Shown piece after piece: positions 1 to 16,315 of a DNA stretch of 64,000 bases (position 1 is the stretch's first letter; each line of letters begins with the position of its first letter). Made by a program: the position numbers and the translations under genes. The notes under the pieces are model-generated. The model ran no database searches, had not been told where the DNA came from, and saw only the letters and a program-made list of their open reading frames with translations. Where the stretch lies: NCBI RefSeq assembly GCF_005795905.1, contig NZ_VAWE01000001.1, positions 6,189,001-6,253,000 of the forward strand, given 5' to 3'. The DNA comes from Streptomyces marianii (GTDB taxonomy: Bacteria > Actinomycetota > Actinomycetes > Streptomycetales > Streptomycetaceae).

Positions 1-504
1 GAGAAGATCCGCGCCCTGATCCAGCACGGTCTGGTCGACGTCTCGGCCGGTCCCGAGGCCGAGGTGGAGCTGGACGCGAGCAGCGGACGCTTCGTGGTGC
101 GCGGCGGTGTCACCGGCGCCGAACTGCCGGTCGACATCCTCGTCGACTCGCGTGTGCACCCCTTCGACGCCGAGAACGACGTCCTGCCGATCTACCCGAA
201 CCTGCTGCGGCGCGGGCTCGTCCGCAAGTGGCGCAACCCGGGCGTCGGCGAGCCGGATTTCGCTCCCGGTGGCCTGGATCTCACGGAGGACTTCCACCCG
301 GTGCGCGCCGACGGCGAGGTGGACCGGCGGCTCACCCTGCTCGGCCCGCCCAGCGAGGGCGTGATGTTCTTCCAGTTGGGCGCGTTGCGCCCGAACCAGA
401 ACCATCACGTCATGCAGGACATCCTGTGCTGGATGCGGGAGTTCTGGGGACAGGACGGCACCGCCGCCGACACGGTCGGCGAGCGCATCACCACAGGGGT
501 CTGA
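1..504 (+). CDS. C-terminal part of a probable FAD/NAD(P)-binding protein (5' end outside window)
   Basis: The reading frame is open from base 1 to a TGA at 502-504, so the gene begins upstream of the window. Visible residues include DILVDSRVHPFD, a PGGLDLTEDFHPV stretch and a GVMFFQLGALRPNQNHH end. These resemble the C-terminal part of large actinobacterial FAD-NAD(P)-binding proteins of the lysine-monooxygenase-like type that occur in biosynthetic clusters. The nucleotide-binding motifs themselves are not in view, so the assignment rests on overall resemblance and is tentative. The stop lies 3 bases before the ATG of the next gene, which shows that it is the upstream member of the operon. 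Confidence 0.5.
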   Translation, partial: EKIRALIQHGLVDVSAGPEAEVELDASSGRFVVRGGVTGAELPVDILVDSRVHPFDAENDVLPIYPNLLRRGLVRKWRNPGVGEPDFAPGGLDLTEDFHPVRADGEVDRRLTLLGPPSEGVMFFQLGALRPNQNHHVMQDILCWMREFWGQDGTAADTVGERITTGV

Positions 505-507
505 GAG

Positions 508-1221
508 ATGGCGAACACACACGGCGAAAGCGCCGAACGGCTCGGCGAGATCGCGGCGATCCACGCCCGCCTGCGCGAGGACGCGGCGGCGCTGGACGAC
601 GCGGCGGCACGCGAGGCGACCGAGCTGCCGGGCTGGAGCAGGGGACACGTCCTCACCCACCTCGGCGACCTGGCCCGCGCCTTCGCCCGCCAGGCGCGCT
701 ACGCCGTCGAGGGCCGCACCGTAGAGGTGTACGACGGCGGTCGGCCCGGCCGTGACGCGGCCATCGAGCGGGGCGCGGGGCGTTCCGCGGCGGAGCTGCG
801 GGAGGGGCTGGAGGACGGGCTCACACAACTGGAGGAGGCGTGGGCCAAGCTGGGCCCCGACGACTGGAGCCTGCGCTGTGCCTACCGCGATGCGGATCTG
901 CTGGCCACCCAGCTGTGCTGGTGGCGCGAGGCGCACATCCACTACGCCGACCTGGGCACCGGCTACCGGCCCGAGGAATGGGGCGACGGCCTCGGCGCGC
1001 ACCTCGTCGGATACCTGCTGCCCCGGCTGCCCGATGCCCGCACCACGGTGCTGCTGTCCGGCGACACGACGCGCCGCTGGAAGCACGGTTCGGGCGCCCC
1101 GACCACGGTCCACGGCACCCAGAACACCCTGGCCGCCTGGCTCGCTGGGCGGTCCGCCGCCCAGCTGCCCAAGGCCTACGGGTCCACCGATTCCCTGCCG
1201 GACCTGGGCCCCTGGCCCTGA
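508..1221 (+). CDS. Mycothiol-dependent maleylpyruvate isomerase-like (MDMPI/DinB) enzyme
   Basis: This 237-residue protein has the MDMPI N-terminal domain: a four-helix DinB-like bundle with the GWSRGHVLTHL signature. His51, Glu141 and His145 sit at the spacing of the zinc ligands of the Corynebacterium maleylpyruvate isomerase, so metal binding is probably intact. Family members use mycothiol as cofactor or thiol donor for isomerisation, or for thiol transfer in natural-product pathways. In this cluster it may act on an electrophilic intermediate; that role is inference. It starts 3 bases after the preceding stop and is clearly co-transcribed with the flavin and ATP-grasp genes downstream. 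Confidence 0.8.
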   Translation: MANTHGESAERLGEIAAIHARLREDAAALDDAAAREATELPGWSRGHVLTHLGDLARAFARQARYAVEGRTVEVYDGGRPGRDAAIERGAGRSAAELREGLEDGLTQLEEAWAKLGPDDWSLRCAYRDADLLATQLCWWREAHIHYADLGTGYRPEEWGDGLGAHLVGYLLPRLPDARTTVLLSGDTTRRWKHGSGAPTTVHGTQNTLAAWLAGRSAAQLPKAYGSTDSLPDLGPWP

Positions 1222-1287
1222 TCACGGCGTCGGACACCGCACCGCGCGGGCCCGGAACACCACGCACGACAGAAGGAGACCACAGGC

Positions 1288-1929
1288 ATGGCGGCACAGA
1301 CACAGACTCTCAGCGGTGACACCACCTTGGTGCTGCCCGAGTTCGACACCCCGCCGCAGGACCCCTACCCGCTGATGCGTGCCTGGCTGGACTCCGCGGT
1401 GGCCCGCGAGGTCCGCGAGCCGTACGCGGCGGTGCTGGCCACCGCCGACCGGTCGGGCCGGGCGTCGAGCCGGGTGCTGCTGGTCAAGGAGATCGACGAC
1501 CGGGGGCTGCGGTTCACCAGTTTCAGGGGCAGCCGCAAGGGCCAGGACCTGGCCGAGACGCCCTGGGGGTCGCTCACCTTCTACTGGCGGGAGACGCTCC
1601 AGCAGCTCACCGTACAGGGCCCGGTGGAGGTCCTCACCGGCGCGGAGTCCGACGAGCTGTTCGCCCGGCGGCCGCTCGCCGCGCAGGCCACCACAGCGGT
1701 CTCCCGGCAGAGCCGCCCCCTCAAGGACGAGGCCGAGCTCAAGGCCGGTGCGAAGGCGCTGGTCGCCGCGGGCGGCCCGGTCGCCCGCCCCGACGAGTGG
1801 ACCGGCTACCGGCTCGTGCCGCAGGCCATCGAGTTCTGGTATGGCAGCCCCGACCGACTGCACCGGCGACTGCGCTACGACCGCGGCGCGGACAGCGCCG
1901 ACTGGACGCACCAGCGGCTCCAGCCCTGA
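1288..1929 (+). CDS. PhzG/PdxH-like FMN oxidase (PPOX family)
   Basis: This 213-residue protein has the pyridoxamine-phosphate-oxidase split-barrel fold. An N-terminal DPYPLMRAWLDSA region is followed by the FMN-binding SSRVLLVKEID and TSFRGSRKGQDL segments. A C-terminal PdxH-type dimerisation stretch contains RLHRRLRYDR and ends WTHQRLQP. A good AGAAGGAG ribosome site lies just upstream of the ATG. Enzymes of this group either make pyridoxal phosphate or, as with PhzG, oxidise a late pathway intermediate. The location inside a biosynthetic operon favours the latter. The substrate cannot be told from sequence. Confidence 0.8.
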   Translation: MAAQTQTLSGDTTLVLPEFDTPPQDPYPLMRAWLDSAVAREVREPYAAVLATADRSGRASSRVLLVKEIDDRGLRFTSFRGSRKGQDLAETPWGSLTFYWRETLQQLTVQGPVEVLTGAESDELFARRPLAAQATTAVSRQSRPLKDEAELKAGAKALVAAGGPVARPDEWTGYRLVPQAIEFWYGSPDRLHRRLRYDRGADSADWTHQRLQP

Positions 1930-1974
1930 GGTCCTCGATCCTCATCCGATCAGCAACAAGCTTGGAGAGACCCC

Positions 1975-3330
1975 ATGTACGCTACCGAGCCGCTCCAGGC
2001 GGTGGCAGGCGACCTGGTCAGCACGATGCGCCGACATCGCCCGCCGGATTGCGCGGGCACCTCGGGCGCCGTCCAGGCCTGGCACCGCACCAGCGGACGC
2101 TTCGCGGAGGGCCGGGTCAGCGACATCAGCGTCCAGCGGGGCGAGGGCACGTCCGCCAGGTACGTGCTCCGCGACGGCTTCCGGCACCGCTCGGTGTCGG
2201 GCCTCGATCCGTACGCCGCCGTCCTCGACGGGGACGGAGGCCGTGCCCCGGCCGGCGCGGGACCGGGGCGGACCGCCAGGGGCGGCACCGGGCCGGAGTG
2301 GATGGAGATCTCCTCCGTCCTGTCCGTGCTTCGCGATCTGGAGAAGTCGGCCCGGGACCTCGACCCCGCGGTGGCCCAGGTCGTCATCGACTTCGAGCTG
2401 AGCGAACAGGACATGGTCCTCGCCCAGGACGACCGGATACGCGAGGAACACCGGCTGCTCAGCTACCTCACCGTGCGGGTCATCGCCCGCAGAGGCGGCC
2501 GGATGTCCACTGGCTTCTACACCCCCGGCATCAGCGGCACCCTGGACGGCATCGACGCCGCGGCCGCCGGCATCGAGGTCGCCCGGCGCGCGGTGACCGG
2601 CCTCGACGCCCGGCCCGCCCCGATGGGCCACCTCCCGGTCGTGGTGGCCGGGGGGCGCGGCATGGTCCTGCTCCACGAGGCGTGCTGCCACCCGCTGGAG
2701 GGCGACGAGGTGCTGCGCGGTTCCGTCTACGCCGGGCGGCTCGGCGAGACCATCGCCTCCCCGCTGGTCACCATCACGGACGACCCCACCGTCCCCGGGG
2801 CGGTCGGCTCCTTCGGCCACGACGACGAGGGCACGGCCGGGACACCGACGACGCTCATCGAGAACGGCGTCCTCAAGGGCTATCTGACGGACCAGGAGTC
2901 AGCCGCGCGGCTCGGCCTCCCGTCCAGCGGCAACGGCCGGTGCACCACCGTGCTGCACCCGCCGCAGCCCCGGATGACGAACACCTGCCTCGCGGTCGGC
3001 ACGGCCGGCGTTGATGACATCGTCTCCGGCACCGAGTTCGGGATCTTCGCCCAGCATGTCGGCGGTGGCGAGGTCATCGAGTCCACGGGCGAGTTCACCT
3101 TCCGTGTGACCAACGGCTTCCTGATCGAGAACGGCAGGATCACCGACCCCATCGAGGAAACCACCATCACAGGAACAGGAACCCAGGTGCTCAGGGACAT
3201 CGACGCGATAGCCGACGACCCCGTCGTCGGGGCGGCCAAGTGCGGCAAGTTCGGCCAGTGGGTTCCGGTGGGTGTCGTCGGGCCTACGCTGCGCGTGCGG
3301 TCGCTCCTGGTCGGCGGTACCGGACGATGA
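1975..3330 (+). CDS. TldD-like metalloprotease subunit
   Basis: The 451-residue product matches the TldD/PmbA family. The metal-binding motif HEACCHPLEGDE has His234, Glu235 and His239, followed by the conserved GTAGTPTTLIENG and VESTGEFTFRV-like segments. TldD forms a heterodimer with TldE that degrades unfolded or modified peptides and matures small peptides such as microcin B17. The stop overlaps the start of the tldE-like gene by ATGA, so the subunits are translationally coupled. A pair inside a cluster rich in ATP-grasp ligases suggests trimming of a peptide-like product or protection from it (inference). Confidence 0.87.
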   Translation: MYATEPLQAVAGDLVSTMRRHRPPDCAGTSGAVQAWHRTSGRFAEGRVSDISVQRGEGTSARYVLRDGFRHRSVSGLDPYAAVLDGDGGRAPAGAGPGRTARGGTGPEWMEISSVLSVLRDLEKSARDLDPAVAQVVIDFELSEQDMVLAQDDRIREEHRLLSYLTVRVIARRGGRMSTGFYTPGISGTLDGIDAAAAGIEVARRAVTGLDARPAPMGHLPVVVAGGRGMVLLHEACCHPLEGDEVLRGSVYAGRLGETIASPLVTITDDPTVPGAVGSFGHDDEGTAGTPTTLIENGVLKGYLTDQESAARLGLPSSGNGRCTTVLHPPQPRMTNTCLAVGTAGVDDIVSGTEFGIFAQHVGGGEVIESTGEFTFRVTNGFLIENGRITDPIEETTITGTGTQVLRDIDAIADDPVVGAAKCGKFGQWVPVGVVGPTLRVRSLLVGGTGR

Positions 3331-4631
3331 GTGAGGCGTCCGACTTCCTGAACGCGACCGCCGCCGACCGGGGCGCCGACTCCGAGGTGTGGGAGAACGC
3401 CCACGAGACTGACGAGCTGGTCTGCCGGGAGGGCCTGGTGGAACGCCGGGTCTCCACCGCCGCCACGGCCACCGCCCTGACCGTCTGGAAGGACGGGAGC
3501 GAGGGGTACGCCGTGCACATCCCCGGCGGAGCCGACGCCTCGCTCGTCGACACCGCCCTCGCGGTCGGCCGGACCCTGGGCTCCGCGGCTCCCGCGCCCG
3601 CCCGCCGCACCGGGCAGGCCGCGGGGCCCCGGACGCTCGCGGACCCGCAGCTCGACGAGACGGTGGCCCGGCGCCTCGCCGGACTCACCACGGGTGCCGC
3701 CGATGTGGACGTCGAGCTGCGCGCCAGGGCCGACCGGTCCCGGGTCCTGCTGCACCGGGCCGGCTGCGAGCCGCTGCGGCACACCACGGGCACCTTCCAG
3801 TTGCAGGCCCGGATCACCGCCAAGGGCCGCCGCGTCGGGTTCATCGCGCACCAGATGTTCGGGCGGTCGGTGGACGCCGTCCTCGAGGACGCCGAAGCCA
3901 CCGAGCTCGCCCAGCTGACGGCCCTCGCACGGGTACTGGCCCGCGAACCCGTGCCGCGCCTCTCCTACGACGACGTCCTCCTCGACGGGCGTGTGATGGC
4001 GAAGCTGTTCATGCTCGCCGTGCCCGCCTTCCAGCTGGACTCCGTCCTGGAGGGCCGCTCGCCGCTGGCCGGCCGCACCGGCGAGCGGATCGGCAGCGCG
4101 GGCCTGTCCCTCGTGGACGACCCGATGGCGGCGGGCAGCCCCCTGCCCACGCCCTGGGACGACGAGGGCACCGCGTGTGGGCCCACCACGCTGCTGGAGG
4201 ACGGCGAGCTGCGCGGCTTCCTCAGCTCGCGCCGCACCGCCGCCGAGGCGGGGACGGTGAGCACCGGTTCGGGCCGCCGCGGGCCCTCCGGCGAGATGCC
4301 CACCGTGCAGCCGGGGTTCCTGGCTCTGCGCCCCGCCGCCGCGCTGGGGGACGCCCCGCTCGACGGCCGGACCCTGCTGAAGGTGGTGCAGGCCAACGGC
4401 GCCCACACATCGAACGTCATCACCGGCGACTTCTCCATCGGCGCCAACGCGGTCCTCATCACCCCCGACGGCGTCCAGCACAACGCCGGCAACATCACCC
4501 TCGCCGGTAACGTGTTCGAACTGCTCGCCCGGATAGACGGCCACGACGGGCGGCTGCGGCTCAACCGCGGTCACACCTCCTTCGTCGCGAGCCCCGGCGT
4601 CTGGGCGTCCGGGCTCACGATCGGGCGGTAG
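3327..4631 (+). CDS. TldE/PmbA-like partner subunit
   Basis: The ATG at 3327 overlaps the tldD-like stop (ATGA), which is why this start was chosen over upstream in-frame codons. The 434-residue product has the TldE/PmbA fold: an N-terminal SEVWENAHETDELVCREG region, a central GRSVDAVLEDAE region and a glycine-rich C-terminus with GDFSIGANAVLI and HNAGNITLAGN. As in other TldE proteins the HExxxH metal motif is absent, so it is expected to be the non-catalytic half of the heterodimer. An MFS exporter follows after 7 bases. Confidence 0.84.
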   Translation: MSEASDFLNATAADRGADSEVWENAHETDELVCREGLVERRVSTAATATALTVWKDGSEGYAVHIPGGADASLVDTALAVGRTLGSAAPAPARRTGQAAGPRTLADPQLDETVARRLAGLTTGAADVDVELRARADRSRVLLHRAGCEPLRHTTGTFQLQARITAKGRRVGFIAHQMFGRSVDAVLEDAEATELAQLTALARVLAREPVPRLSYDDVLLDGRVMAKLFMLAVPAFQLDSVLEGRSPLAGRTGERIGSAGLSLVDDPMAAGSPLPTPWDDEGTACGPTTLLEDGELRGFLSSRRTAAEAGTVSTGSGRRGPSGEMPTVQPGFLALRPAAALGDAPLDGRTLLKVVQANGAHTSNVITGDFSIGANAVLITPDGVQHNAGNITLAGNVFELLARIDGHDGRLRLNRGHTSFVASPGVWASGLTIGR

Positions 4632-4638
4632 CCGCACC

Positions 4639-5886
4639 ATGTCACTGATCAAGCAACGGGACTTCCGCTTCTTCTGGGCCGCCCAGACGGCCAGTACGCT
4701 CGGCGCCAACATGAGTCGGGTCTCGCTGCCCCTGCTGGCCGCGACGACGCTGGCCGCCACCCCCTTCCAGATGGGGCTGCTCCAAGCGGCGCAGACCATC
4801 GCCTTCCTGCTCATCGGCCTGCCGGCGGGCACGCTGGTCGACCGGGCTCGCCGGCGGCCGATCCTCATCGCCTGCGACGGGCTGCGCGCGCTCTTCCTGG
4901 TGTTCCTGGTCATCGGGTTCGCCCTGGACCGCGTGGACTTCACCGGGCTGATGGCGGCGACCCTGGCGATCGGCTTCGCCACCGCCTTCTACGAGATCGC
5001 CTACCAGTCGTACATCCCGGCCGTGGTGGGACGGGCCCACCTCGTCGAGGGCAACGCCAAGCTGGAGAGCACCAACGCCGTGGCCCGACTCGCCGGCCCC
5101 ACCCTCGGCGGCTCGCTCGTGCAGCTGCTGGGCGCCACGCTCACCGTGGCCTCCCAGACCGTCGGCCATGTGGTGTCGGCCCTGCTGGTGACCCGGATAC
5201 GTACCGTCGAGGAGCGACCGCCCCGCGGGGAACGGCCCCGGATGGCGGCCGAGATCAGCAGCGGCCTGCGGTTCGTGCTGCGCCAGCCGGTGTTCCGGGC
5301 CATCACCGGCTCCGCCGCGACGTACAACTTCTTCTACGCGGTCATGCTGCCGCTGATGATGCTCCTGCTGGTCGAGGAGCTGGGGCTGTCAGGCACCACC
5401 GTCGGTGTGCTGATGGCGGTCAGCGGACTCGGCGGCATCCTCGGTGCGGCGGCGGCCGGCCGCCTCGCCCTGCGGTTCGGGCAGGTGCGCGTCATGTGGC
5501 TGGCGTACCTGGTGACGGTACCGACCACCCTGCTCATCCCGCTGGCCCACAGCGGCTGGGGAATCGCTCTGTTCGCCGTCCCCTGGTTCACCGTCAGCTT
5601 CGGCATCGTCGTCTACAACGTCGGCCAGGTCAGCATCCGGCAGGCCCTGTGCCCGCCGGAGATGCTGGGCCGGATGAACGCCAGCGTGCGGTTCATCGTC
5701 TGGGGCATCCTCTCGCTCGGCTCGCTGACCGGTGGTGCCCTCGGCAAGTGGATCGGCCTGCGCGGCGGCCTGTTCGTCGCGGGCGCCGGGATGACCGCCG
5801 GGGTCCTGTGGCTGCTCCTGTCCCGCCTGGTCCGGATGCGCGATCTGCCCGCCGAGCCCCGGGCGGTGCCGGCCCCCTCCCCCTGA
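4639..5886 (+). CDS. MFS efflux transporter
   Basis: This 415-residue membrane protein has about 12 hydrophobic helices. The loop between helices 2 and 3 carries the major-facilitator motif as GTLVDRARRRPILIACD. It resembles the EntS-like MFS_3 group that exports siderophores and other secondary metabolites. It lies within the operon, directly after the TldE-like gene, so export of, or self-resistance to, the cluster product is the natural role. The C-terminal tail after the last helix is short and polar. Confidence 0.85.
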   Translation: MSLIKQRDFRFFWAAQTASTLGANMSRVSLPLLAATTLAATPFQMGLLQAAQTIAFLLIGLPAGTLVDRARRRPILIACDGLRALFLVFLVIGFALDRVDFTGLMAATLAIGFATAFYEIAYQSYIPAVVGRAHLVEGNAKLESTNAVARLAGPTLGGSLVQLLGATLTVASQTVGHVVSALLVTRIRTVEERPPRGERPRMAAEISSGLRFVLRQPVFRAITGSAATYNFFYAVMLPLMMLLLVEELGLSGTTVGVLMAVSGLGGILGAAAAGRLALRFGQVRVMWLAYLVTVPTTLLIPLAHSGWGIALFAVPWFTVSFGIVVYNVGQVSIRQALCPPEMLGRMNASVRFIVWGILSLGSLTGGALGKWIGLRGGLFVAGAGMTAGVLWLLLSRLVRMRDLPAEPRAVPAPSP

Positions 5887-5937
5887 CGAGCCCCGAAACC
5901 GACCGGCCCCCGAAGAAACTGATCAAGGAGAACCCCC

Positions 5938-7218
5938 ATGTCCGACCGGAAGACTCCCCGTTACGTGGTCTTCGTCGAGTCCCCCCTGACCGGCGCGGGC
6001 CAGGACTGCGCCCGATTCCTGCTGGAGCAGGGCGTGACCCCGGTCGTGGTGGCGGCCCGGCCCCCGGCCATGGCGCCCTCGCTGATCCGCGACTACGCCG
6101 AGCTGGGCGTGGAGGTCCGCGCCTGCGACACCCACGACGCCGACGCCGTCGCCGACGCCTGCCGGGAGATCGCCGCGGACGGCGAACTCGTCGGAGTCGC
6201 CTCGGTGTACGAGTACTACTGCGACATGGGCGCCCAGGTGGCCGCCCTGCTGGGAGTGCCCGGCCCCGACCCGGCGGCCGTGGCCGCCTGCCGTTCCAAG
6301 GCGTCCATGCGCGCCGCGATGGCCTCGACGCCCGGTCTCAACCCGCGCTTCGAGGTGTGCTCGTCGGCGGAGGAGGCCGCGTCCGCCGCGGCCTCGATCG
6401 GGTTCCCGGTCGTGGTGAAGCCGCTGGACCTCACCGGCAGCCTGTGGGTGCGACGGTGCGGGACGGCCGAGGAGGTCGACGCGATCACCCGGGAGATCAT
6501 GGGGATCGGCGAGTACCTCGGCCAGGAGGTGGCCCCCCGGGTGGTCGTCGAGGAGTACGTCCCCGGCGCCGAGTACTCCGCGGAGGTCATGCACGGCAAG
6601 GTGCTCGGCCTCACCGAGAAGATCTGCAGCGCGCCCCCGCTGTTCCTGGAGATGGGTCACATCTTCCCGGCGGCGGTCACCGGCGACCGGGAGCGCCTGC
6701 TCGTCGAGAAGGCCGAGCAGGCCGTCAAGGCGATCGGGCTGACCTGGGGCCCCGCCCATGTCGAGCTCAAGCTGACCGCCGGCGACAAGGACGCCCGGGT
6801 CATCGAGGTCAACGGGCGGATCGCCGGTGACCGGATTCCCGAAGCGGTGCGGATCGCCAGCGGCGTCGACATGTGCCGCCTCCACATGACCGCGCTGCTG
6901 GGCGACACCCCCGACCTGAACGTCGTCTGCGACCGCACCGCGGTCGTCCACTTCCTGATGTCGGCGCCGCTCGGCCGCCTCGACGCCATCGACGGCGTTG
7001 CCGAGGCGCAGGCCCTGGAGGGCGTGCACGAGGTGCACATGCGTCCCGGCGTGCAGCCGGGCATGGTCTACCGGGCCAACGGGTCGAACCGGGACCGCGC
7101 CGCCTGGATCATCGCCGAGGGAGCCGACCGCGACGAGGCGCTCGGCCGCGCCGTGGCGGCGGGCGAGAAGCTGACCTTCACCTGGTCGCCGGTGGACGAG
7201 TCCGAGGTCAGGGGCTAG
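5938..7218 (+). CDS. ATP-grasp ligase 1
   Basis: The 426-residue protein has the three-part ATP-grasp fold. An N-terminal Rossmann-like domain is followed by an ATP-binding segment with FPVVVKPLDLTGS and EEYVPGAEYSAEV. The catalytic part has HVELKLTAGDKDARVIEVNGRIAGD, in which Glu and Asn would bind magnesium. Such enzymes form amide bonds through an acyl-phosphate, typically joining amino acids (L-amino-acid ligase or carnosine-synthase type). A strong AAGGAGAACCCCC ribosome site precedes the ATG. It is one of three divergent ATP-grasp proteins in this operon, so each may make a different bond. Substrates are unknown. Confidence 0.85.
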   Translation: MSDRKTPRYVVFVESPLTGAGQDCARFLLEQGVTPVVVAARPPAMAPSLIRDYAELGVEVRACDTHDADAVADACREIAADGELVGVASVYEYYCDMGAQVAALLGVPGPDPAAVAACRSKASMRAAMASTPGLNPRFEVCSSAEEAASAAASIGFPVVVKPLDLTGSLWVRRCGTAEEVDAITREIMGIGEYLGQEVAPRVVVEEYVPGAEYSAEVMHGKVLGLTEKICSAPPLFLEMGHIFPAAVTGDRERLLVEKAEQAVKAIGLTWGPAHVELKLTAGDKDARVIEVNGRIAGDRIPEAVRIASGVDMCRLHMTALLGDTPDLNVVCDRTAVVHFLMSAPLGRLDAIDGVAEAQALEGVHEVHMRPGVQPGMVYRANGSNRDRAAWIIAEGADRDEALGRAVAAGEKLTFTWSPVDESEVRG

Positions 7219-7223
7219 CCGTC

Positions 7224-8666
7224 GTGCCAACCACCCCCGAGCACCGCCCGGTGCGCTTCGCAGCGGGCGAGGCGCACCGGGCACCGCTCACCTGGAGCCA
7301 GCGGTACTACCTGGCCGAGACGGACGCCGCCCGGCCGCTGGGGCGCGGGCTCGCCATCAGGAGGCTCTACGAGCTGCGGCCCGGTGTGAGCGAACAGGAC
7401 GTCGTGGCGGCCCTGCGCGACCTGCTGCATCGCTTCGAGGGCCTGCGCAGCACGGTCGTCCGCGAAACGGTCGGTGCGGATGCCGGAGCCGGTCAGCACG
7501 TCCACCCGGAGGGCGTCTTGCGCCTCGCCGTCCACGCCGTGGACGGCGAGGCCCAGGCCGCGGAGGCCGCGGCCGCCGTGCTGGACGCCCTGGCCGCGAA
7601 GCCGTTCGAGGTCGCCGAAGAGTGGCCAGTGCGCGCGGCGCTGATCGGCCCCGCGGGCTCACCCCGTTTCCTGGCGCTGGTGTTCAGCCACGTCGCGGTG
7701 GACGCGTTCGCTCTGCTGCCGGTCACCGACCACCTCGTCGCCGCCGTCGCCGTACGCCGTCCCGAGTGGCCGCCCGCCCGGAGCCGGGACGCGGGTCGCA
7801 GCCCTCGGGAACAGGCCGCCGCCGAGGCGGCCGAGCCGTCCCGCCGCACGGCGGAGCGCGCCCTGCGGCGAGCGGCCGAAGCCTTCCGCGCCATGCCGGC
7901 CGCGCCCCCTGCCCAGGGCCCCCCGGACGATGCCGGGTCCGCCGACCGGTGCCGGTTCCTGTCGCGCACCTCGCCCGCGCTGGACCTGGCGGCCGGTGCC
8001 GTGTCGCTGCGCACGGGGGAGGGCGTCGCCACCGTGCTCGCCGCTGCCATGGTCGCGGTCGACGCCCACCTCGCGGACAGCCCGACGGGGTACCTCCAGC
8101 TGCTCGCCGCAAACCGGTCGCGCCCCGAGACCGTCAACGCCGTGGTGCCCTGTTCACAACCCGTGCCGTGCTGTGTGCCCGTGGCGGGCTCGTCCTTTCC
8201 CGAGTTGGTCCGTGCCACCGCCTCGGCCACTCTGGGCGCGCTGCGCTTCGGTTCGTATCCGCCGGACCGGCTGGCCGGGCTGCACCGTGCCGTCGAACGG
8301 GAGCGGGGGGTCCGCCTGGACATCACGCCCACGTTCAACTACCGGCCCCGGGCGAGCGCCCTGCCCCGTCGCGTCGTCACCGCGGCGGAGCTGGAGGAGT
8401 CCGCCGCGGCCGGTGCCACCCGCTGGGTTCCCAGCGATCTGGTCTGGCGGTCCAGCCGCTATCTGAGCGCCGACGTCAGCGAGTCCGGTATCCGGCTGGT
8501 GCTCCAGGTGGACACCCGGGTGCACACCCCCCGCTGGGCCGAGCACTGGATGGCGGCGCTGGAGCGGCTGCTGTGCGCGGCTGCGACCCGGGAGGTGACC
8601 GCAGAGGAGCTGCGGCGCGTGGTGAAAGAGTCACAACCGACACGTCAGGAGTCGAGATGTCGCTGA
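7224..8666 (+). CDS. Stand-alone condensation-domain-like acyltransferase
   Basis: The chosen GTG lies 5 bases after the ATP-grasp 1 stop and gives a 480-residue protein. The N-terminus begins the CoA-dependent acyltransferase/condensation fold (APLTWSQRYYLAET). The active site is SHVAVDAF, with His156 and Asp160 forming HxxxD; the first His of the usual HHxxxDG is replaced by Ser. No carrier or adenylation domain is attached, so it would act in trans as a PapA-like acyltransferase or a free-standing condensation enzyme, joining an activated acyl group to an amine or alcohol. It overlaps the next ATP-grasp gene by 10 bases. Confidence 0.72.
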   Translation: MPTTPEHRPVRFAAGEAHRAPLTWSQRYYLAETDAARPLGRGLAIRRLYELRPGVSEQDVVAALRDLLHRFEGLRSTVVRETVGADAGAGQHVHPEGVLRLAVHAVDGEAQAAEAAAAVLDALAAKPFEVAEEWPVRAALIGPAGSPRFLALVFSHVAVDAFALLPVTDHLVAAVAVRRPEWPPARSRDAGRSPREQAAAEAAEPSRRTAERALRRAAEAFRAMPAAPPAQGPPDDAGSADRCRFLSRTSPALDLAAGAVSLRTGEGVATVLAAAMVAVDAHLADSPTGYLQLLAANRSRPETVNAVVPCSQPVPCCVPVAGSSFPELVRATASATLGALRFGSYPPDRLAGLHRAVERERGVRLDITPTFNYRPRASALPRRVVTAAELEESAAAGATRWVPSDLVWRSSRYLSADVSESGIRLVLQVDTRVHTPRWAEHWMAALERLLCAAATREVTAEELRRVVKESQPTRQESRCR

Positions 8667-9898
8667 GTGGTACGCAACGTTCCGTGGTCATGGTCGGCGC
8701 GGGCGTCATGGCGGAGGGCTATCTCCGCGCGGCCCAGCGCATGGGCCTGAGGGTGGGTCTGGTGGAGACCGCCGCCCGGCACGCCGCACTGGCCCCCCGG
8801 TTCCCGTGCGTCGTCGACTTCGAGCCGGTGGGTGGCGTCGCGGCCCGGGACGAGTCGTGGCTGCCCCCGGCGATGACGCTGGCCGGCCGGCTGGCTCCGG
8901 ACGCGGTGCTGGGGTTCGCCGAGCCGCACGTGCTCGCCACGGCGATCCTGCAGCACCGGCTCGGCGTGCCCGGGCCGGGCCTCGACGCCGCCACGGTCTC
9001 CCGCAACAAGGCGCTGCAGCGCGGTGAGTTCGCCCGCGCGGGCCTGCCGCAACCCGGCCACCGGCACACGGTACGGCTGTCGGACGCCTCCGAGTGGGCC
9101 CTGGAGAGGCTGCCCGTGGTCGTCAAGCCCGTGTCGCTGCAGGGCAGCACGGGCGTCGAGCGGATCGACACCCCCGAGCACTGGCAGGACGCCGTACGCC
9201 GCCGCGACGACGAGGGCCCTCTGCTGGTCGAGAGCTACGTCGAGGGGCCGGAGTACAGCATCGAGGCGCTGGTCCGGGACGGGCAGGTGCTGTTCACCAA
9301 CCTGACCCGCAAGGAGACCACCGGGGCCCCGTTCTTCGTGGAGCTGTTCCACGAGGCCGGCCACGGCGCCCGGAACCCGGTGCTGCGGAAGGCGGCGGAC
9401 GAGCTGTGCCGCGGTGTGGTGGCCGCCCTGCGCCTCGGCACCGGGATCGCGCATCTGGAGTTCAGGGCCCGCACCGACGACGACCTCGTGATCATGGAGG
9501 TCGCGGTACGCACCCCAGGCGACCACATCCTGGAGATCGTCTCCCTGGCGCACGACTTCGACGTGTACGAGGCCTGCCTGCGGATGGCCCTGGGCGAGCA
9601 ACCGCGACTGCCGCCCGTCGACCGGGGCCCCGCGCGCTCCGCGGGCAGCCTGTTCCTCGGCGCCGACCGGGCCGGGATCCTCACCGCGCTCGACCTGTCG
9701 GACTGGGCGGCCCAGGAGGACGTGGTCCACCATGCCGCCCGGCTGGCGCCCGGCACGGCCGTACGCCCCGCCGAGGACTCCGGGGACCGGCTGGCGTACG
9801 CCGTGCTCGCCTGCCCGGGGGCGGCGGAACTCGCCGCCCGGGCGGAGCGGTTGCGGGCGACCGCCCACGTGGAGATCACCGACGCCGCCCCCGCCTGA
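8657..9898 (+). CDS. ATP-grasp ligase 2
   Basis: The start at 8657 overlaps the end of the condensation-like gene and gives a 413-residue ATP-grasp protein. A dinucleotide-like N-terminus (VVMVGAGVMAEGYLRAA) is followed by LPVVVKPVSLQGSTG, ESYVEGPEYSIEALV and the metal-binding AHLEFRA and MEVAVRTPGD. The last motif lacks the Asn seen in ligase 1, and the sequence is clearly diverged, so it probably uses a different acyl donor or acceptor. Translational coupling to the condensation-like protein suggests that the two act on successive steps. Confidence 0.83.
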   Translation: MSLSGTQRSVVMVGAGVMAEGYLRAAQRMGLRVGLVETAARHAALAPRFPCVVDFEPVGGVAARDESWLPPAMTLAGRLAPDAVLGFAEPHVLATAILQHRLGVPGPGLDAATVSRNKALQRGEFARAGLPQPGHRHTVRLSDASEWALERLPVVVKPVSLQGSTGVERIDTPEHWQDAVRRRDDEGPLLVESYVEGPEYSIEALVRDGQVLFTNLTRKETTGAPFFVELFHEAGHGARNPVLRKAADELCRGVVAALRLGTGIAHLEFRARTDDDLVIMEVAVRTPGDHILEIVSLAHDFDVYEACLRMALGEQPRLPPVDRGPARSAGSLFLGADRAGILTALDLSDWAAQEDVVHHAARLAPGTAVRPAEDSGDRLAYAVLACPGAAELAARAERLRATAHVEITDAAPA

Positions 9899-9963
9899 GC
9901 CGCGCCCGCGCTCAGCCCTCGTACACGCCCTGAACCCCAGCACGCACAGGACAAGGAAGACGT

Positions 9964-11220
9964 ATGTCAGCAGAACGAGTCTTGATCATCGGCGGCCGGC
10001 TCGAGAACGTGCGCAAGGCCGTGGAGCAGGGCCTCTCAGTCGTGTACCTCCAGCAGCCGGGGCAGTTCACCCCCGAGCACGCGAAGCTGGTCGACGCGGC
10101 CTTCCTCGTCGACTTCGCGGACTGGTCCGTGGTCGAGCCCATCGTCGCGGCCGCCCACAAGGTCTACGGTTTCACCCGGGTGGCCACTACCGGCGAGGCG
10201 GGCGTGGAGGTCGCCGGGCGGATCAACGACCTGCTGGGTCTGGGCGGCGTCTCCCACGAGGTCGCCCGGCGGCTCCGGGACAAGCTGAGCATGCGCGAGC
10301 ATCTCGCCCGCGTCGGGGCCGCCACGGTGCCGGCGGCCGAGGTGACCGACCGGGCAGCGCTGGAGGCGTTCGGCGCCGCGCACGGCTACCCGTTCATCGT
10401 GAAGCCGGTCGACGGCATCGCGAGCCTGGGCATCCAGTTGGTACGGGGGCCGCAGGAGGTTGGCGCGGCCTGGGACCGTATCGGTGAACTGCGCGCCTCG
10501 GAGCACCAGTTCGCCCAGTACTTCCCGTTGGACCGCTTCATCGCCGAGAGCTATGTCGAGGGGCCCGAGTTCAGCGTCGAGGCCTTCACCTTCGAGGGCC
10601 GGCATGTGGTCGTCGCCGTCACGGAGAAGCTGACCGACGGCAACTTCGTGGAGGCGGGCCATGTGATCCCGGCCCGGATCGACGCGGATACCGAGCGCGC
10701 CGTCGAGGCGGCCGTCGTGGAGTTCCTGGACGCCGTGGGCGTGGTGCACGGCCCCACCCACACCGAGCTGCGGCTCTCCCCAGACGGACCCCGAGTGATC
10801 GAGTCCCACAACCGGCCGGGCGGCGACCGGATCAGAGATCTGGTGGAAGCGGCGTACGGCTTCGACATGGAGGCGTACACGGTCGCCTGGCCGTGCCCCG
10901 GACTGCCGGCCCCGGCCGGGCGTCCCCCGCTGGTGCAGGCCGCCGCGACCCGCTTCCTGACCGCCGAGCCCGGGGTGGTGTCACGGGTCGAGGGCGTCGA
11001 CGAGGCCCGCGCCCTGGAGGGGGTCGTGGAGCTGGATCTCCAGGTCTCCGCCGGGGACGAGGTGGCCGCGCTCAGGTCCAGCTGGGACCGGATCGGCCAG
11101 GTGATCGCGGTCGGCGCCGACGCCGACGCGGCCCTGGCGACCTGTGATGAGGTGTGTGCGTCGACGGTCGTCGTCACCGGGGAGGGCCCAGCGGAGGCCG
11201 TGCCCGGGACGGGCCGGTGA
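9964..11220 (+). CDS. ATP-grasp ligase 3
   Basis: This 418-residue ATP-grasp protein has a good AAGGAAG ribosome site before its ATG. Its motifs are YPFIVKPVDGIASLG, ESYVEGPEFSVEAFTF and HTELRLSPDGPRVIESHNRPGGD, where the last segment carries the magnesium ligands. It is the third amide-forming ligase of the operon and differs from the other two in all motif surroundings. Its TGA overlaps the GTG of the following PPOX gene (GTGA), so the interrupted flavoprotein was the next translationally coupled member of the pathway. Confidence 0.85.
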   Translation: MSAERVLIIGGRLENVRKAVEQGLSVVYLQQPGQFTPEHAKLVDAAFLVDFADWSVVEPIVAAAHKVYGFTRVATTGEAGVEVAGRINDLLGLGGVSHEVARRLRDKLSMREHLARVGAATVPAAEVTDRAALEAFGAAHGYPFIVKPVDGIASLGIQLVRGPQEVGAAWDRIGELRASEHQFAQYFPLDRFIAESYVEGPEFSVEAFTFEGRHVVVAVTEKLTDGNFVEAGHVIPARIDADTERAVEAAVVEFLDAVGVVHGPTHTELRLSPDGPRVIESHNRPGGDRIRDLVEAAYGFDMEAYTVAWPCPGLPAPAGRPPLVQAAATRFLTAEPGVVSRVEGVDEARALEGVVELDLQVSAGDEVAALRSSWDRIGQVIAVGADADAALATCDEVCASTVVVTGEGPAEAVPGTGR

Positions 11221-11329
11221 GCTACTCCGAGATCACGTCCCTGGAGGAACTGCGCGAGGTGGTCGGACCGGCCTCGCGCAGGGTGTTCGACAAGGCCTCG
11301 GCGACGCTGCGGGACGTGGACCGCCAGTG

Positions 11330-12864
11330 CAACACCGTTGCGTTTGGTCTTTGAGTTGTAAGTCAAGCCCTGCTGAACAGCGCGACGGGACCACCTGATA
11401 GATCAACGATCGGCGAAGAGAGTCGATCAAGGTCAGGGGTCCCGTTGCAGGAGAAGTCTGTCATCACGTCCACGATCGAGACAGCCCGGGGTGTGTTCGC
11501 GCCGGGTCATCTGGGGGAGTTGACCCAGGTCGTGGACTTCGCGCTGGTGGACGCGGTGCTGGAGGAGACCGGCCGGCGCGAGAAGCGCCTGCGGCTGCTG
11601 CCTTCTCGGGTGGTGGTGTACTTCGTGCTCGCTCTCGCGCTGTTCGAACACCGCTCGTACCGCACGGTGTGGTCCCAACTGACTGCCGCCCTGACCCCGC
11701 TGGCCCTGGTGCGTCCTGCGGTCTCCTCGCTGACGCGGGCCAGGCGCAGGGTGGGGGCCGCACCTCTGCGGCGTCTGTTCGAGACGCTTGCCGGGCCCGT
11801 CGCCCGCCCCGGGCAGGAGGGGTCCTTCTACCGGGGCCTGCGCACGGTGGCCGTCGACGGGACCCTGCTGCACACCCCCGACGACGAGACGCTCACCTGG
11901 CACTACCCCAAACGGGCCGGGGAGGGTCTGGAGTTCGGCTATCCGCTCCTGCGGCTGCTGACCCTGGTCGAGTGCGGCACCCGCGCGCTCATAGCCGCCG
12001 CCTTCGGACCGGAGTCCCAGGGCGAACTCCCCTACGCCAAGCGGCTTCTGACCTCCCTGGACCAGACAATGCTCCTACTCGCCGACACGGCCTTCGACGG
12101 CAACGAGTTCCTTGATGCCGTCCATCAGAGCGGGGCCCGGTTCCTGGTGCGCTCCGGGGCCCGCCGCGTCCCCACCCCCGCCGAGCACCTGGGCGACGGC
12201 TCCTACATCGCCCGCATCGGCTACGGCGTCCTGCCGGTGCTGCTGCCGGTGCGCATAATCGAGGCGGCCCTCACCGTCACCCTGGCCGATGGCACCGTCC
12301 GCACCGAGCAGTGGCGGCTGATCACCAACCTGCTGGACCCCGTCCGTTATCCGTCCGCCGAGCTCGTTGAGCTCTATCACCGCAGGTGGCAGGCGGAAAC
12401 CACGTATTTTTCGATCAAGGCCACGATGCTCGACGGCCGTGTCCTGCGCTCCCGCAGCACCGACGGCCTCGACCAGGAGGTCTACGCCCTGCTCACCGCC
12501 TACCAGGCTCTGATCCGCGCCGGCGACGACGCCCTGACCAGGCGGCCGGAAGTACCCAGGGAACGGATCAGTTTCACCGTCCTGCTGGCCGCCGCAACCG
12601 ACACCGTCACCGCCGGCCATGGAATCTTCCCCGGCACCCCCATCGACCTGGTCGGCACGATCGGCCACGCCGCCCTGAGCGACCTCCTGCCCGCCCACCG
12701 ACGGCAACGAGTGAAGGCCCGCACCCGCAAGAACCCCACCAGCAAGTACGGACCGAACGCCGGACAGCACCCCCAGAAGGCCCAGAACTACACCGTCCAC
12801 ACCACCGTCGCGTTCTTCGCCCACGGCCTCAACAGCCGCTCACAGCGCTAACGCAACGGTGTTG
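11330..12864 (+). mobile_element. IS4-family insertion sequence, 1535 bp
   Basis: The element starts CAACACCGTTGCGTT and ends with the exact complement, a 15-bp perfect terminal inverted repeat. It is flanked by a perfect 10-bp target duplication, ACCGCCAGTG, at 11320-11329 and 12865-12874. The single internal gene encodes an IS4-type DDE transposase. Undamaged ends, a perfect duplication and an otherwise intact target gene all point to a recent transposition. Confidence 0.93.
11445..12851 (+). CDS. IS4-family transposase
   Basis: The 468-residue DDE transposase has an N-terminal IS4 domain (HRSYRTVWSQLT). The first Asp lies in AVDGTLLHTPDDE and the second in LLADTAFDGNEF. The IS4 signature YHRRWQAETTYFSIK fits the Y-(2)-R-(3)-E-(6)-K rule exactly. 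The start is a TTG at 11445; no better ATG or GTG lies close to it. The stop falls just inside the right terminal repeat. The enzyme looks intact and probably active. Confidence 0.88.
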   Translation: MQEKSVITSTIETARGVFAPGHLGELTQVVDFALVDAVLEETGRREKRLRLLPSRVVVYFVLALALFEHRSYRTVWSQLTAALTPLALVRPAVSSLTRARRRVGAAPLRRLFETLAGPVARPGQEGSFYRGLRTVAVDGTLLHTPDDETLTWHYPKRAGEGLEFGYPLLRLLTLVECGTRALIAAAFGPESQGELPYAKRLLTSLDQTMLLLADTAFDGNEFLDAVHQSGARFLVRSGARRVPTPAEHLGDGSYIARIGYGVLPVLLPVRIIEAALTVTLADGTVRTEQWRLITNLLDPVRYPSAELVELYHRRWQAETTYFSIKATMLDGRVLRSRSTDGLDQEVYALLTAYQALIRAGDDALTRRPEVPRERISFTVLLAAATDTVTAGHGIFPGTPIDLVGTIGHAALSDLLPAHRRQRVKARTRKNPTSKYGPNAGQHPQKAQNYTVHTTVAFFAHGLNSRSQR

Positions 12865-13433
12865 ACCGCCAGTGGCTGGAGCGATCACCCTTCTGCCTGG
12901 TCGCGACGGCGGCGGCGGACGGCACGTGCGACGTCTCCCCCAGGGGCGACCCGCCGGGCTTCGCCCATGTTGTGGACGACTCGACCCTGGCGATCCCGGA
13001 CCGGCCGGGCAACCGGCGGGCCGACAGCTGGCGCAACGTACTCGGCAACCCACGGGTGGGCCTGGCGTTCGTCGTGCCCGGCCGGCCCGACACGCTGCGG
13101 ATCAACGGCCGCGCGAGGCTGCTGCGGGACGCGCCGTTCTTCGACCGTATGACGGTCCGCGGCAGCAGGCCCCGGCTCGCCCTGCTCGTGGAGGTGGAGG
13201 AGGTCTACTTCCACTGCGGCAAGTCCTTCCTGCGCGCCCGGTTCTGGGACCCCTCCACCTGGGCGCCGGACGCCGTGCCCTCGCGTGCCCGGATCGCCCA
13301 CACCACAGAGTGGACCGGCACGCCGCTGGACCAGCTGGAACGCCGCTACGGCCCCGAGTACGAGCGGCTTCTCTATCCACAACCGCCCGACTCCACATGA
13401 CGAAGCGCACTACTCGCCAAGGCTGTCAATTCC

Positions 13434-13765: not shown

Positions 13766-13906
13766 ATTGCCAGCATTGGGTCAAAATTTGCCAAGCCGCC
13801 CCACGGCGTGGAAGTATCGGAAGCCAGTGTCCAAGCCCGACTCACGGTCGGCTTGGAGTTGTCCGGTCGGGGACAAGGCGCCACGTGTTCCACGCAGAGG
13901 TGGAAG

Positions 13907-15378: not shown

Positions 15379-15648
15379 ATGGCACGTCCGTCCCCATACC
15401 CGCCCGAGCTTCGTGAGCGTGCGGTGCGCATGGTCGCGGAGATCCGCCCGAACTATCCGACCGAGTGGGCCGCGATGAAGGCGGTCGCAGCCAAGCTGGG
15501 GATCGGTGCGGCGGAGACGGTGCGGACCTGGGCCTGCAAGGCCGAAGCCGACGGCGGCCGGCGGCCCGGCGTCACGTCCGAGGAGGCCGCGGAGATCAAG
15601 CGGCTGCGGGCCGAGAACGCCGAGCTGCGGCGGGCGAACGAGTCTTGA
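15379..15648 (+). CDS. IS3-family OrfA
   Basis: The 89-residue protein is a typical IS3 OrfA. An N-terminal helix-turn-helix (PPELRERAVRMVAEIRP) is followed by a C-terminal leucine-zipper-like stretch (EIKRLRAENAELRRANE) used for multimerisation. It would normally be fused to OrfB by a -1 frameshift near its end. A GAGAGGAT-type ribosome site lies 5' of the ATG. The gene itself is intact, but its partner is destroyed. Confidence 0.8.
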   Translation: MARPSPYPPELRERAVRMVAEIRPNYPTEWAAMKAVAAKLGIGAAETVRTWACKAEADGGRRPGVTSEEAAEIKRLRAENAELRRANES

Positions 15649-16315
15649 AGGCGGCGTCGGCTTTCTTCGCGGCCGAGCTCGACCGGCCGTCGAAGCGCTC
15701 GTAGCGTTCATCGACGCACACCGCCAGGTGTTCGGAGTCGAGCCGATCTGCCGAGTCCTGACCAGCCACGGACTGAAGATCGCAACGAGCACCTACTACG
15801 CCGCCAAGAACCGCACCCCCAGCGCCCGGTCGGTCCGCGATGCGGAGCTGAAGACGCAGATCAGCCGCGTCCACACGGACAACTTCAGTGTCTACGGCGG
15901 GCGAAAAGTCTGGCGGCAACTGCACCGCGAGGGCATACCCGTGGCCCGCTGCACCGTCGCCCGGCTGATGCGCGACCTCGGCCTTCAGGGCGCCCGACGC
16001 GGGAAGAAGATCCGCACCACCATCCGGGACGACGGCCAGGACAGGGCTGGTGACCTGCTCCGGCGCGACTTCACCGCGTCACGTCCGAACGAGCGGTGGG
16101 TGGCCGACTTCACCTACGTTGCCACCTGGTCCGGGATCGTCTACGTCGCGTTCGTCGTGGATGTCTTCGCCCGCACGATCGTGGGCTGGTCCGCCGCCAC
16201 CAGCAAGCGGGCCAGGCTCGTCCTCGACGCCCTCGACATGGCCTTGTGGCGACGCCACCGCGCCGGAACTCCCGCTGGACCGGGGCTGGTTCACCATTCC
16301 GACGCGGGCAGTCAA

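What the first reader, a model, noticed from the sequence alone, without database searches (positions are those of the whole stretch)
1..13400. Unassigned biosynthetic operon with three ATP-grasp ligases, TldD/TldE and a lone condensation-like enzyme
Sequence shows one coupled operon with a flavoprotein, an MDMPI enzyme with intact metal ligands, a PhzG-like oxidase, a TldD/E protease pair, an exporter, three mutually divergent ATP-grasp proteins, an HxxxD acyltransferase and a second PPOX protein. There is no NRPS adenylation or carrier domain. Established knowledge: ATP-grasp ligases build short peptides and TldD/E matures or degrades peptides. Inference: the product is a small modified oligopeptide or amide made without an assembly line, with mycothiol involved. 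I know no characterised cluster with exactly this set.
Basis: partly seen in the sequence, partly recalled or inferred. Interest (0 to 1): 0.82.

Follow-up and report, generated by a model that had tools for sequence, protein, structure and literature searches.

The report
Hybrid phosphonate-peptide gene cluster
The 'unassigned operon' is the right half of a roughly 32-kilobase Streptomyces gene cluster that probably makes a small peptide carrying a carbon-phosphorus group with an oxidised nitrogen, an unusual mixture of known chemistries whose product is not yet known.

Summary
The listed genes are there, but the window's left edge cut the cluster in two and misled the interpretation. The 17 kb to the left hold PEP mutase (PepM), SbnA/SbnB (diaminopropionate), an NRPS adenylation domain, a carrier protein, a FomA-like kinase, a PhnW-like aminotransferase and most of the 'flavoprotein', a PcxL/FzmM-type N-oxidase. 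A divergent operon carries 2-hydroxyacid dehydrogenase, PGK-like, ArgC-like, Zn-ADH and Fe-ADH genes, the C3 phosphonate set recalled from valinophos. So this is a phosphonate cluster, and the 'lone' condensation enzyme has an A domain and a carrier. The 'second PPOX' gene is broken by an IS4-family element. Three of four named relatives carry the same order. The fourth, S. hokutonensis, keeps 18 of 25 genes but has phosphonopyruvate decarboxylase in place of the C3 module: one tailoring cassette on two phosphonate cores. Best reading: a transaminated, N-oxidised C3 phosphonate, with mycothiol involved, joined to a short peptide by a dissociated A/PCP/C module plus three ATP-grasp ligases. The product is unknown; phosphonocystoximate is the main known-product rival. 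A new variant of a known kind (PepM phosphonopeptide clusters).

The parts
1..504 (+). C-terminal 167 codons of a 742-aa FAD/NADPH N-oxidase (PcxL/FzmM/CreE kin). The other upstream parts, in window coordinates (L009 minus 17000): DUF402 gene -16986..-16396 (+); Fe-ADH -16362..-15244 (-); PGK-like -15244..-13991 (-); ArgC-like -13998..-12895 (-); Zn-ADH -12904..-11804 (-); 2-hydroxyacid dehydrogenase -11798..-10851 (-); PepM -10633..-9773 (+); SbnA -9720..-8752 (+); SbnB -8755..-7694 (+); A domain -7697..-6045 (+); NTP_transf_5 -6048..-4864 (+); PCP -4788..-4516 (+); kinase-like -4519..-3872 (+); FomA-like -3875..-2916 (+); PhnW-like -2903..-1776 (+); N-oxidase start -1724 (+)
   Evidence: PDB 8cp2 match 147.7 bits
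508..1221 (+). MDMPI/DinB-type mycothiol-dependent enzyme
   Evidence: PF11716 78.7 bits, TIGR03083 88.6 bits, cut-off 50; triad H51/E141/H145
1288..1929 (+). PhzG-type FMN oxidase
   Evidence: NF038138 292 bits, cut-off 270; no match on the two S. hokutonensis cluster contigs
1975..3330 (+). TldD metalloprotease subunit
   Evidence: PF19289 201 bits; HEACCH
3327..4631 (+). TldE/PmbA partner subunit
   Evidence: PF19289 145 bits (start)
4639..5886 (+). MFS exporter
   Evidence: PF05977 122 bits, PF07690 118 bits
5938..7218 (+). ATP-grasp amino-acid ligase 1
   Evidence: PF13535 61.8 bits, LAL_C2 50.9 bits
7221..8666 (+). free-standing NRPS-type condensation enzyme
   Evidence: PF00668 20.5 bits, below cut-off 30.6; model pLDDT 89.4 matches 7kvw, SgcC5 4znm, CmnI 9uay at E about 1e-18
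8672..9898 (+). ATP-grasp amino-acid ligase 2 (start codon uncertain, 8630-8672)
   Evidence: PF13535 67.5 bits, LAL_C2 41.9 bits
9964..11220 (+). ATP-grasp amino-acid ligase 3
   Evidence: PF13535 88.6 bits, LAL_C2 84.3 bits
11217..11329 (+). 5' piece of the MSMEG_1061-type PPOX gene, broken by the IS
   Evidence: 94.6% identical over 37 aa to the intact S. anulatus gene L011:13984-14619
11330..12864 (+). IS4-family insertion sequence (transposase 11445-12851)
   Evidence: NF033592 164 bits, cut-off 115; 8 copies in the genome, 10-bp duplication at 8 of 8
12865..13400 (+). rest of the broken PPOX gene
   Evidence: 88.2% identical over 178 aa to the intact S. anulatus gene
13847..15121 (+). 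HTH-TPR regulator, probable right edge of the cluster (start uncertain)
   Evidence: PF13560 46.4 bits; found to the right of the last cluster gene in 4 of 4 relatives, 55-88% identical

Best explanation
The finding is the distal half of a phosphonate biosynthetic gene cluster of about 32 kb that makes an N-oxidised three-carbon phosphonate joined to a short peptide. SHOWN by sequence: gene content, one 20-gene operon plus a divergent five-gene operon, conservation, no recognisable phosphonopyruvate decarboxylase (Ppd) in the genome, and replacement of the C3 module by a Ppd in a relative. INFERRED: PepM turns PEP into phosphonopyruvate; the 2-hydroxyacid dehydrogenase pulls it on to phosphonolactate; PGK-like and ArgC-like enzymes give the acyl phosphate and phosphonolactaldehyde; Fe-ADH and Zn-ADH interconvert it with dihydroxy- or keto-propylphosphonate; the PhnW-like enzyme aminates the aldehyde or ketone; the PcxL-type N-oxidase takes the amine to hydroxylamine or oxime; the MDMPI enzyme adds or exchanges mycothiol. 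SbnA/SbnB supply 2,3-diaminopropionate, which the A domain probably loads on the carrier and the free-standing condensation enzyme transfers. Three ATP-grasp ligases add residues. TldD/E trims peptides, the MFS protein exports, and the FomA-like kinase protects the host by phosphorylating the phosphonate.
For: PepM: TIGR02320 304 bits (just under its cut-off 319.6; next best phosphonopyruvate hydrolase 246) and EDKLFPKMNS, which has the Asn of the solved PepM where the hydrolase has Thr; the only PepM in the genome at E<=0.001. C3 set: ArgC 318.5 > 233.6 bits, PGK, Fe-ADH, Zn-ADH, 2-hydroxyacid dehydrogenase. No Ppd in G000-G003 (best 40.8 bits against a cut-off of 312.5). SbnA 386 > 350, SbnB 404 > 327 bits. 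A domain and PCP. N-oxidase: 148 bits to the aspartate N-hydroxylase 8cp2; 9 of 120 listed homologues are fused to a PEP-mutase domain; 20 contig lengths are shared by the N-oxidase and PGK-like listings. PhnW/AepZ 355 bits, cut-off 361; FomA 211 bits, cut-off 550, PDB FomA 204 bits against 44 for the next family. Condensation fold. 24 of 24 genes searched, PepM side and window side, are in the same order in 3 of 3 close relatives at 85-96% identity.
Against: No product or activity was measured. The valinophos steps are recalled; the paper is not held. PepM, PhnW-like and FomA-like proteins score under their curated cut-offs. The substrate of the PhnW-like enzyme and of the N-oxidase is not fixed by sequence. 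The A-domain substrate rests on a pocket read by motif anchors on recalled GrsA positions. One small kinase-like and one nucleotidyltransferase-like protein have no assigned role, and the TldD/E role is a guess: in lincomycin both homologues' mutants were rescued by precursors and a regulatory role was proposed. The last gene is broken here and in two relatives.
Confidence: 0.6

Rival explanations
1. This is in substance the phosphonocystoximate (pcx) cluster family, so that the product is the known thiohydroximate or a close relative, and the peptide genes are accessory or build a peptide on it.
For: Streptomyces sp. NRRL S-481, the reported producer (PMC12723261), has a PGK-like protein 99.5% identical to that of the S-455 cluster. 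The survey found one pepM per genome except in three strains, S-481 not among them. The N-oxidase is PcxL kin. The product holds N-acetyl-Cys and a thiohydroximate (PMC13302981), which suits an MDMPI gene beside an N-oxidase.
Against: As recalled, phosphonocystoximate has a C2 core made from 2-aminoethylphosphonate and so needs Ppd; the S-455 genome and the window's genome have none that the search recognised. S-481 itself could not be opened. The survey may have used only part of the S-481 data.
Confidence: 0.18
2. The PhnW-like enzyme transaminates phosphonopyruvate to phosphonoalanine, an aspartate analogue, and the N-oxidase, kin of aspartate N-hydroxylases, oxidises that; the C3 reductive module feeds a separate residue.
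For: N-oxidase matches aspartate N-hydroxylase; phosphonoalanine peptides made by ATP-grasp ligases are known (PMC11867202).
Against: PhnW/AepZ-type aminotransferases act on phosphonoacetaldehyde/2-AEP; the phosphonoalamide enzyme PnaA is described as analogous to aspartate aminotransferase. In S. hokutonensis the PhnW-like protein (64%) sits with a Ppd, which argues for an aldehyde substrate.
Confidence: 0.14
3. The core is plain DHPPA carried as amino-acid or peptide conjugates (valinophos-like), and the N-oxidase acts on an amino acid such as aspartate or diaminopropionate rather than on the phosphonate.
For: C3 set; VlpF-type ATP-grasp ester formation is reported (PMC12723261 passage).
Against: Nine listed N-oxidase homologues are fused to a PEP-mutase domain, and the PhnW-like gene directly precedes the N-oxidase gene.
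Confidence: 0.1
4. Two unrelated clusters abut, and the window half has nothing to do with the phosphonate half.
For: Only the general fact that clusters can abut.
Against: 20 genes on one strand with gaps of at most 75 bp; same order in 3 of 3 close relatives; in the more distant S. hokutonensis cluster 18 genes drawn from both halves are still together.
Confidence: 0.03

Closest known systems
Valinophos and phosphonothrixin pathways (2,3-dihydroxypropylphosphonate branch)
   Same: PepM with 2-hydroxyacid dehydrogenase, PGK-like kinase, ArgC-like reductase and Fe-ADH; ATP-grasp ligases in valinophos (pathway recalled; VlpF from PMC12723261). A PGK-like homologue (59%) is listed for the phosphonothrixin producer Saccharothrix sp. 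ST-888.
   Different: Here also an aminotransferase, N-oxidase, MDMPI, SbnA/B, A/PCP/C module, TldD/E and three ligases.
Phosphonocystoximate / hydroxynitrilaphos clusters (PcxL, HpxL)
   Same: PepM, PcxL-type N-oxidase, signs of mycothiol use
   Different: Those are C2 phosphonates (recalled); this genome lacks a recognisable Ppd and has the C3 set.
Phosphonoalamides (PnaB, PnaC)
   Different: Two ligases and four essential enzymes there; no N-oxidase or NRPS parts are mentioned in the passages I saw.
Lincosamide synthetase (lincomycin/celesticetin)
   Same: Stand-alone A domain, carrier, a DinB/MDMPI-like protein and a pair of TldD-family proteins in one cluster (PMC4351081)
   Different: No phosphonate; LmbD had no similarity to other proteins, whereas the condensation enzyme here has the NRPS C fold.
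SgcC5 and CmnI free-standing condensation enzymes
   Same: Same fold by Foldseek, stand-alone
   Different: 17-18% identity; other clusters and substrates.

Membership tests
PepM-initiated phosphonate cluster | PEP mutase with EDKx(4)NS motif in the cluster | tested here: met
   EDKLFPKMNS in the window's cluster and 4 of 4 relatives; family score 304 v cut-off 319.6
PepM-initiated phosphonate cluster | phosphonate production | not testable with these tools
   needs 31P NMR
DHPPA-type (valinophos, phosphonothrixin) pathway | 2-hydroxyacid dehydrogenase, PGK-like, ArgC-like and Fe-ADH genes with pepM | tested here: met
   present in 3 of 4 relatives
DHPPA-type (valinophos, phosphonothrixin) pathway | no phosphonopyruvate decarboxylase | tested here: met
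   best TIGR03297 match 40.8 bits or less in G000-G003, the level of generic TPP enzymes (13 of 14 control genomes also ring below cut-off)
DHPPA-type (valinophos, phosphonothrixin) pathway | enzymes make phosphonolactate and DHPPA | not testable with these tools
   needs enzyme assays
PcxL/FzmM/CreE N-oxidase family | sequence similarity to a characterised member | tested here: met
   8cp2, E 3.5e-42, 147.7 bits
Phosphonocystoximate (pcx) cluster | C2 entry through Ppd | tested here: not met
   no Ppd over cut-off or near it in the window's genome
Phosphonocystoximate (pcx) cluster | orthology to the S-481 pcx genes | tested here: inconclusive
   only the S-481 PGK-like protein was seen (99.5% to S-455); the genome was not available
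Dissociated NRPS module | A domain, carrier with GxDS, and condensation fold with HxxxD | tested here: met
Dissociated NRPS module | A-domain specificity for a diamino acid | tested here: inconclusive
   pocket read as D-I-W-E-M-T-A-D-D on recalled GrsA positions; Glu kept in 4 of 4 relatives, one position varies M/L/I; no printed match for guessed codes
TldD/E metalloprotease | HExxxH in TldD and a TldE partner | tested here: met
   HEACCH in the window and the 4 relatives' TldD; PF19289 in both
FomA phosphonate kinase | equivalog-level score | tested here: not met
   211 bits v cut-off 550; nearest solved relative is FomA, so it is FomA-like, not FomA

The most novel reading that the evidence does not exclude
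A peptide-caged, N-oxidised three-carbon phosphonate (an oxime, thiohydroximate or hydroxamate of an aminohydroxypropylphosphonate, close in shape to fosmidomycin-type warheads), assembled by a mixture of dissociated NRPS, three ATP-grasp ligases and mycothiol chemistry. The same tailoring cassette serves C2 cores in other strains by exchange of the entry enzymes, so that phosphonate warhead and carrier peptide evolve as separate modules.
Probability: 0.3. Interest if true: 0.82.

Novelty: new variant of a known kind. Interest (0 to 1): 0.6.

Why it matters
Phosphonates are a productive source of antibiotics and herbicides, and mining by pepM depends on knowing what surrounds it. This family joins chemistries I know only apart: the C3 (DHPPA) route, oxime-forming N-oxidation, diaminopropionate with a dissociated NRPS module, and an ATP-grasp trio with TldD/E. 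The C2/C3 entry swap under one cassette is a natural experiment for what MDMPI, TldD/E and the condensation enzyme do. If mycothiol is a substrate, it would also explain why phosphonocystoximate carries N-acetylcysteine.

Tried and rejected
Rejected: primary metabolism (pepM cluster, cluster-type genes); two abutting clusters. Not settled: the S. hokutonensis decarboxylase beta subunit scores alike as phosphonopyruvate (133.8 bits) and sulfopyruvate (132.9 bits) decarboxylase; its place beside pepM decides for the former. Led nowhere: model of the kinase-like protein (pLDDT 46.7, not searched further); A-domain codes in print (0 papers); promoter/terminator scan of the divergent region (none found); plasmid collection (no match); a genus-wide survey with the condensation protein, never answered, so there are no counts of genomes with and without the cluster.

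An error of mine, mended: the C-terminal PPOX piece was first translated in a wrong but open frame (window:12866-13399 and 12872-13399), so the PPOX rows mean nothing. One search repeats the comparison in the right frame with the intact S. anulatus protein and replaces them; it also shows an intact-looking gene in S. hokutonensis.

The N-oxidase tree is a FastTree run of 122 rows with an arbitrary root and flagged long branches; its 'PGK-linked' labels are positive evidence only. The S. hokutonensis cluster lies on two contigs that both end inside TldE; that they adjoin is inferred.
Full report
WHERE IT IS. The window is bases 6189001-6253000 of contig C1 of a 9.0-Mb genome. I fetched the 17 kb to its left (L009; window coordinate = L009 coordinate minus 17000). 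The finding's 1-13400 is the right half of a cluster that runs from a DUF402 gene (L009:14) to an HTH-TPR regulator ending at window 15121, about 32 kb. The regulator is found in 4 of 4 relatives and the DUF402 gene in the two whose left edge I listed (G001, G003). From PepM to the last PPOX gene there are 20 genes on one strand with gaps of at most 75 bp; five genes run the other way.

WHAT THE GENES ARE. Divergent operon: 2-hydroxyacid dehydrogenase, Zn-dependent alcohol dehydrogenase, ArgC-like reductase (TIGR01850, 318.5 bits, cut-off 233.6), PGK-like kinase and Fe-dependent alcohol dehydrogenase. The 742-residue N-oxidase matches the solved aspartate N-hydroxylase 8cp2 (148 bits). The paper behind that structure (PMC10404684, passages) groups it with FzmM, CreE and PcxL, which oxidise amines to the oxime or nitro level in fosfazinomycin, cremeomycin and phosphonocystoximate biosynthesis. 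Nine of the 120 listed N-oxidase homologues (273 matched) are fused to a PEP-mutase domain, which ties this enzyme family to phosphonates.

THE CONDENSATION ENZYME IS NOT ALONE. Pfam's condensation model hits it only below cut-off (20.5 v 30.6 bits), but the predicted structure (41 sequences, mean pLDDT 89.4) matches PCP-C didomains and the free-standing enzymes SgcC5 and CmnI at E about 1e-18 (17-21% identity), and H157 and D161 of HxxxD are invariant in 41 of 41 sequences. With the A domain and carrier upstream this is a dissociated NRPS module. By anchoring on recalled GrsA positions the A-domain pocket reads D-I-W-E-M-T-A-D-D. The Glu is kept in 4 of 4 relatives, the first and last anchors are kept, and one position varies M/L/I. 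Since the operon makes diaminopropionate I infer that it is the substrate; I found no printed match for such a code.

CONSERVATION AND THE ENTRY-MODULE SWAP. Of four named genomes found with the condensation protein, three (S. anulatus NRRL B-2873 = G001, Streptomyces sp. I6 = G002, Streptomyces sp. NRRL S-455 = G003) carry all 24 genes compared (all but PPOX2 and the transposase) in the same order at 85-96% identity. Some matches in I6 are partial (Fe-ADH 1-297, ATP-grasp 3 1-319), which may be assembly errors. The fourth, S. hokutonensis (G004), keeps 18 of 25: PepM 75%, SbnA, SbnB, A, NTP_transf_5, PCP (47% over 59 residues), FomA-like, PhnW-like 64%, N-oxidase 61%, MDMPI, TldD, TldE, MFS, three ATP-grasp, condensation 54% and PPOX2 63%. 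It lacks seven: the five divergent genes, the kinase-like gene and PhzG (no tblastn match at E 0.01 on its two cluster contigs; the best PGK match in its whole genome is 32%). Next to its MDMPI gene lies a two-gene phosphonopyruvate decarboxylase (halves of 132 and 96 bits to TIGR03297, each under the full-length cut-off of 312.5), which the window's genome and the three close relatives lack (best 40.8 bits, the level of generic TPP enzymes). So one tailoring cassette is served by a C2 entry in one lineage and by a C3 entry in the other. In the N-oxidase tree the S. hokutonensis protein lies in a 27-row clade on a long branch with 0 of 27 rows linked to a PGK-like gene, against 21 linked rows elsewhere, the window included. 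Ten of 41 condensation-protein rows share a contig length with the N-oxidase list and 3 of 41 with the PGK list; the tree shows condensation-linked rows on both the C3 side and the C2 side.

THE BROKEN LAST GENE. The second PPOX gene is cut in its 38th codon by a 1,535-bp IS4-family element with inverted ends and a 10-bp target duplication; eight copies exist in the genome and 8 of 8 show 10-bp duplications. The orthologue in S. anulatus is intact, an MSMEG_1061-type FMN protein (236 > 170 bits), and the S. hokutonensis one looks intact (63% over 207 residues). In I6 and S-455 the gene is full of frame breaks and stops. So it is broken in 3 of the 5 clusters compared: dispensable, or a sign that these clusters are starting to decay.

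MECHANISM. Most likely: PEP to phosphonopyruvate to phosphonolactate to phosphonolactaldehyde, as I recall for valinophos. The original papers are not held; PMC12871164 states the dehydrogenase-to-phosphonolactate branch (outline) and PMC12723261 the DHPPA ester ligase VlpF (passages). Then amination by the PhnW-like enzyme and N-oxidation. The MDMPI gene directly after the N-oxidase makes sense if mycothiol captures the oxidised intermediate: phosphonocystoximate is described as a thiohydroximate with N-acetyl-Cys (PMC13302981, passage), the cysteine form expected after mycothiol breakdown. That link is my inference. Peptide assembly by A/PCP/C plus ATP-grasp ligases follows the phosphonoalamide precedent for the ligases (PMC11867202, passages). 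FomA kinship suggests self-protection by phosphorylation. A stand-alone A domain, a carrier, a DinB/MDMPI-like protein and a TldD-family pair also occur together in lincosamide clusters (PMC4351081, passages), where the role of the TldD pair was unresolved.

NOVELTY. Streptomyces sp. I6 is named in PMC12723261 as one of three strains with two pepM clusters, so a member of this family may already sit in that survey uncharacterised. I found no paper in the held library that describes the gene set (open-licence papers only; for most I saw listings or passages). The closest threat to novelty is phosphonocystoximate: its producer NRRL S-481 has a PGK-like protein 99.5% identical to that of S-455. 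I could not open S-481, and the C2 structure of that product (recalled) does not fit a genome type without Ppd.

CONFIDENCE (my estimates). PepM phosphonate cluster 0.97; C3 entry 0.85; N-oxidised amine 0.7; diaminopropionate on the carrier 0.6; the whole best explanation as worded 0.6; any one final structure below 0.35.

Noticed in passing
window 15506-17759: Transposase genes with rve/HTH_21 and HTH_38/rve domains lie overlapping just right of the cluster, which looks like one insertion element run into by another.
   Followed up: partly
L007/L008 (G000:C1:1033537-1036616): Two copies of the same 1,535-bp IS4-family element sit in tandem, 10 bp apart, sharing the duplicated target sequence.
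   Followed up: partly
L009:12481-13125 (window -4519..-3872): P-loop kinase-like protein (GSDGAGKST) with no family above cut-off, 93-96% identical in the three C3 relatives and not found on the C2 cluster contigs; substrate unexplained.
   Followed up: partly
L019 (G002:C1:3205216-3205989): A second PepM-like gene (39% identical) elsewhere in Streptomyces sp. I6, in line with the survey's note of two pepM clusters in that strain.
   Followed up: no
L010:11362-12762: A tRNA-synt_1b family gene (looks like tyrosyl-tRNA synthetase) on the - strand, about 8 kb left of the cluster; probably housekeeping.
   Followed up: no
P0242, P0246, P0249-P0251, P0256, P0264, P0269, P0270: Natural PepM-N-oxidase fusion proteins of about 980-1118 residues, several from metagenomes and Solirubrobacterales; they form one clade in the N-oxidase tree.
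   Followed up: partly
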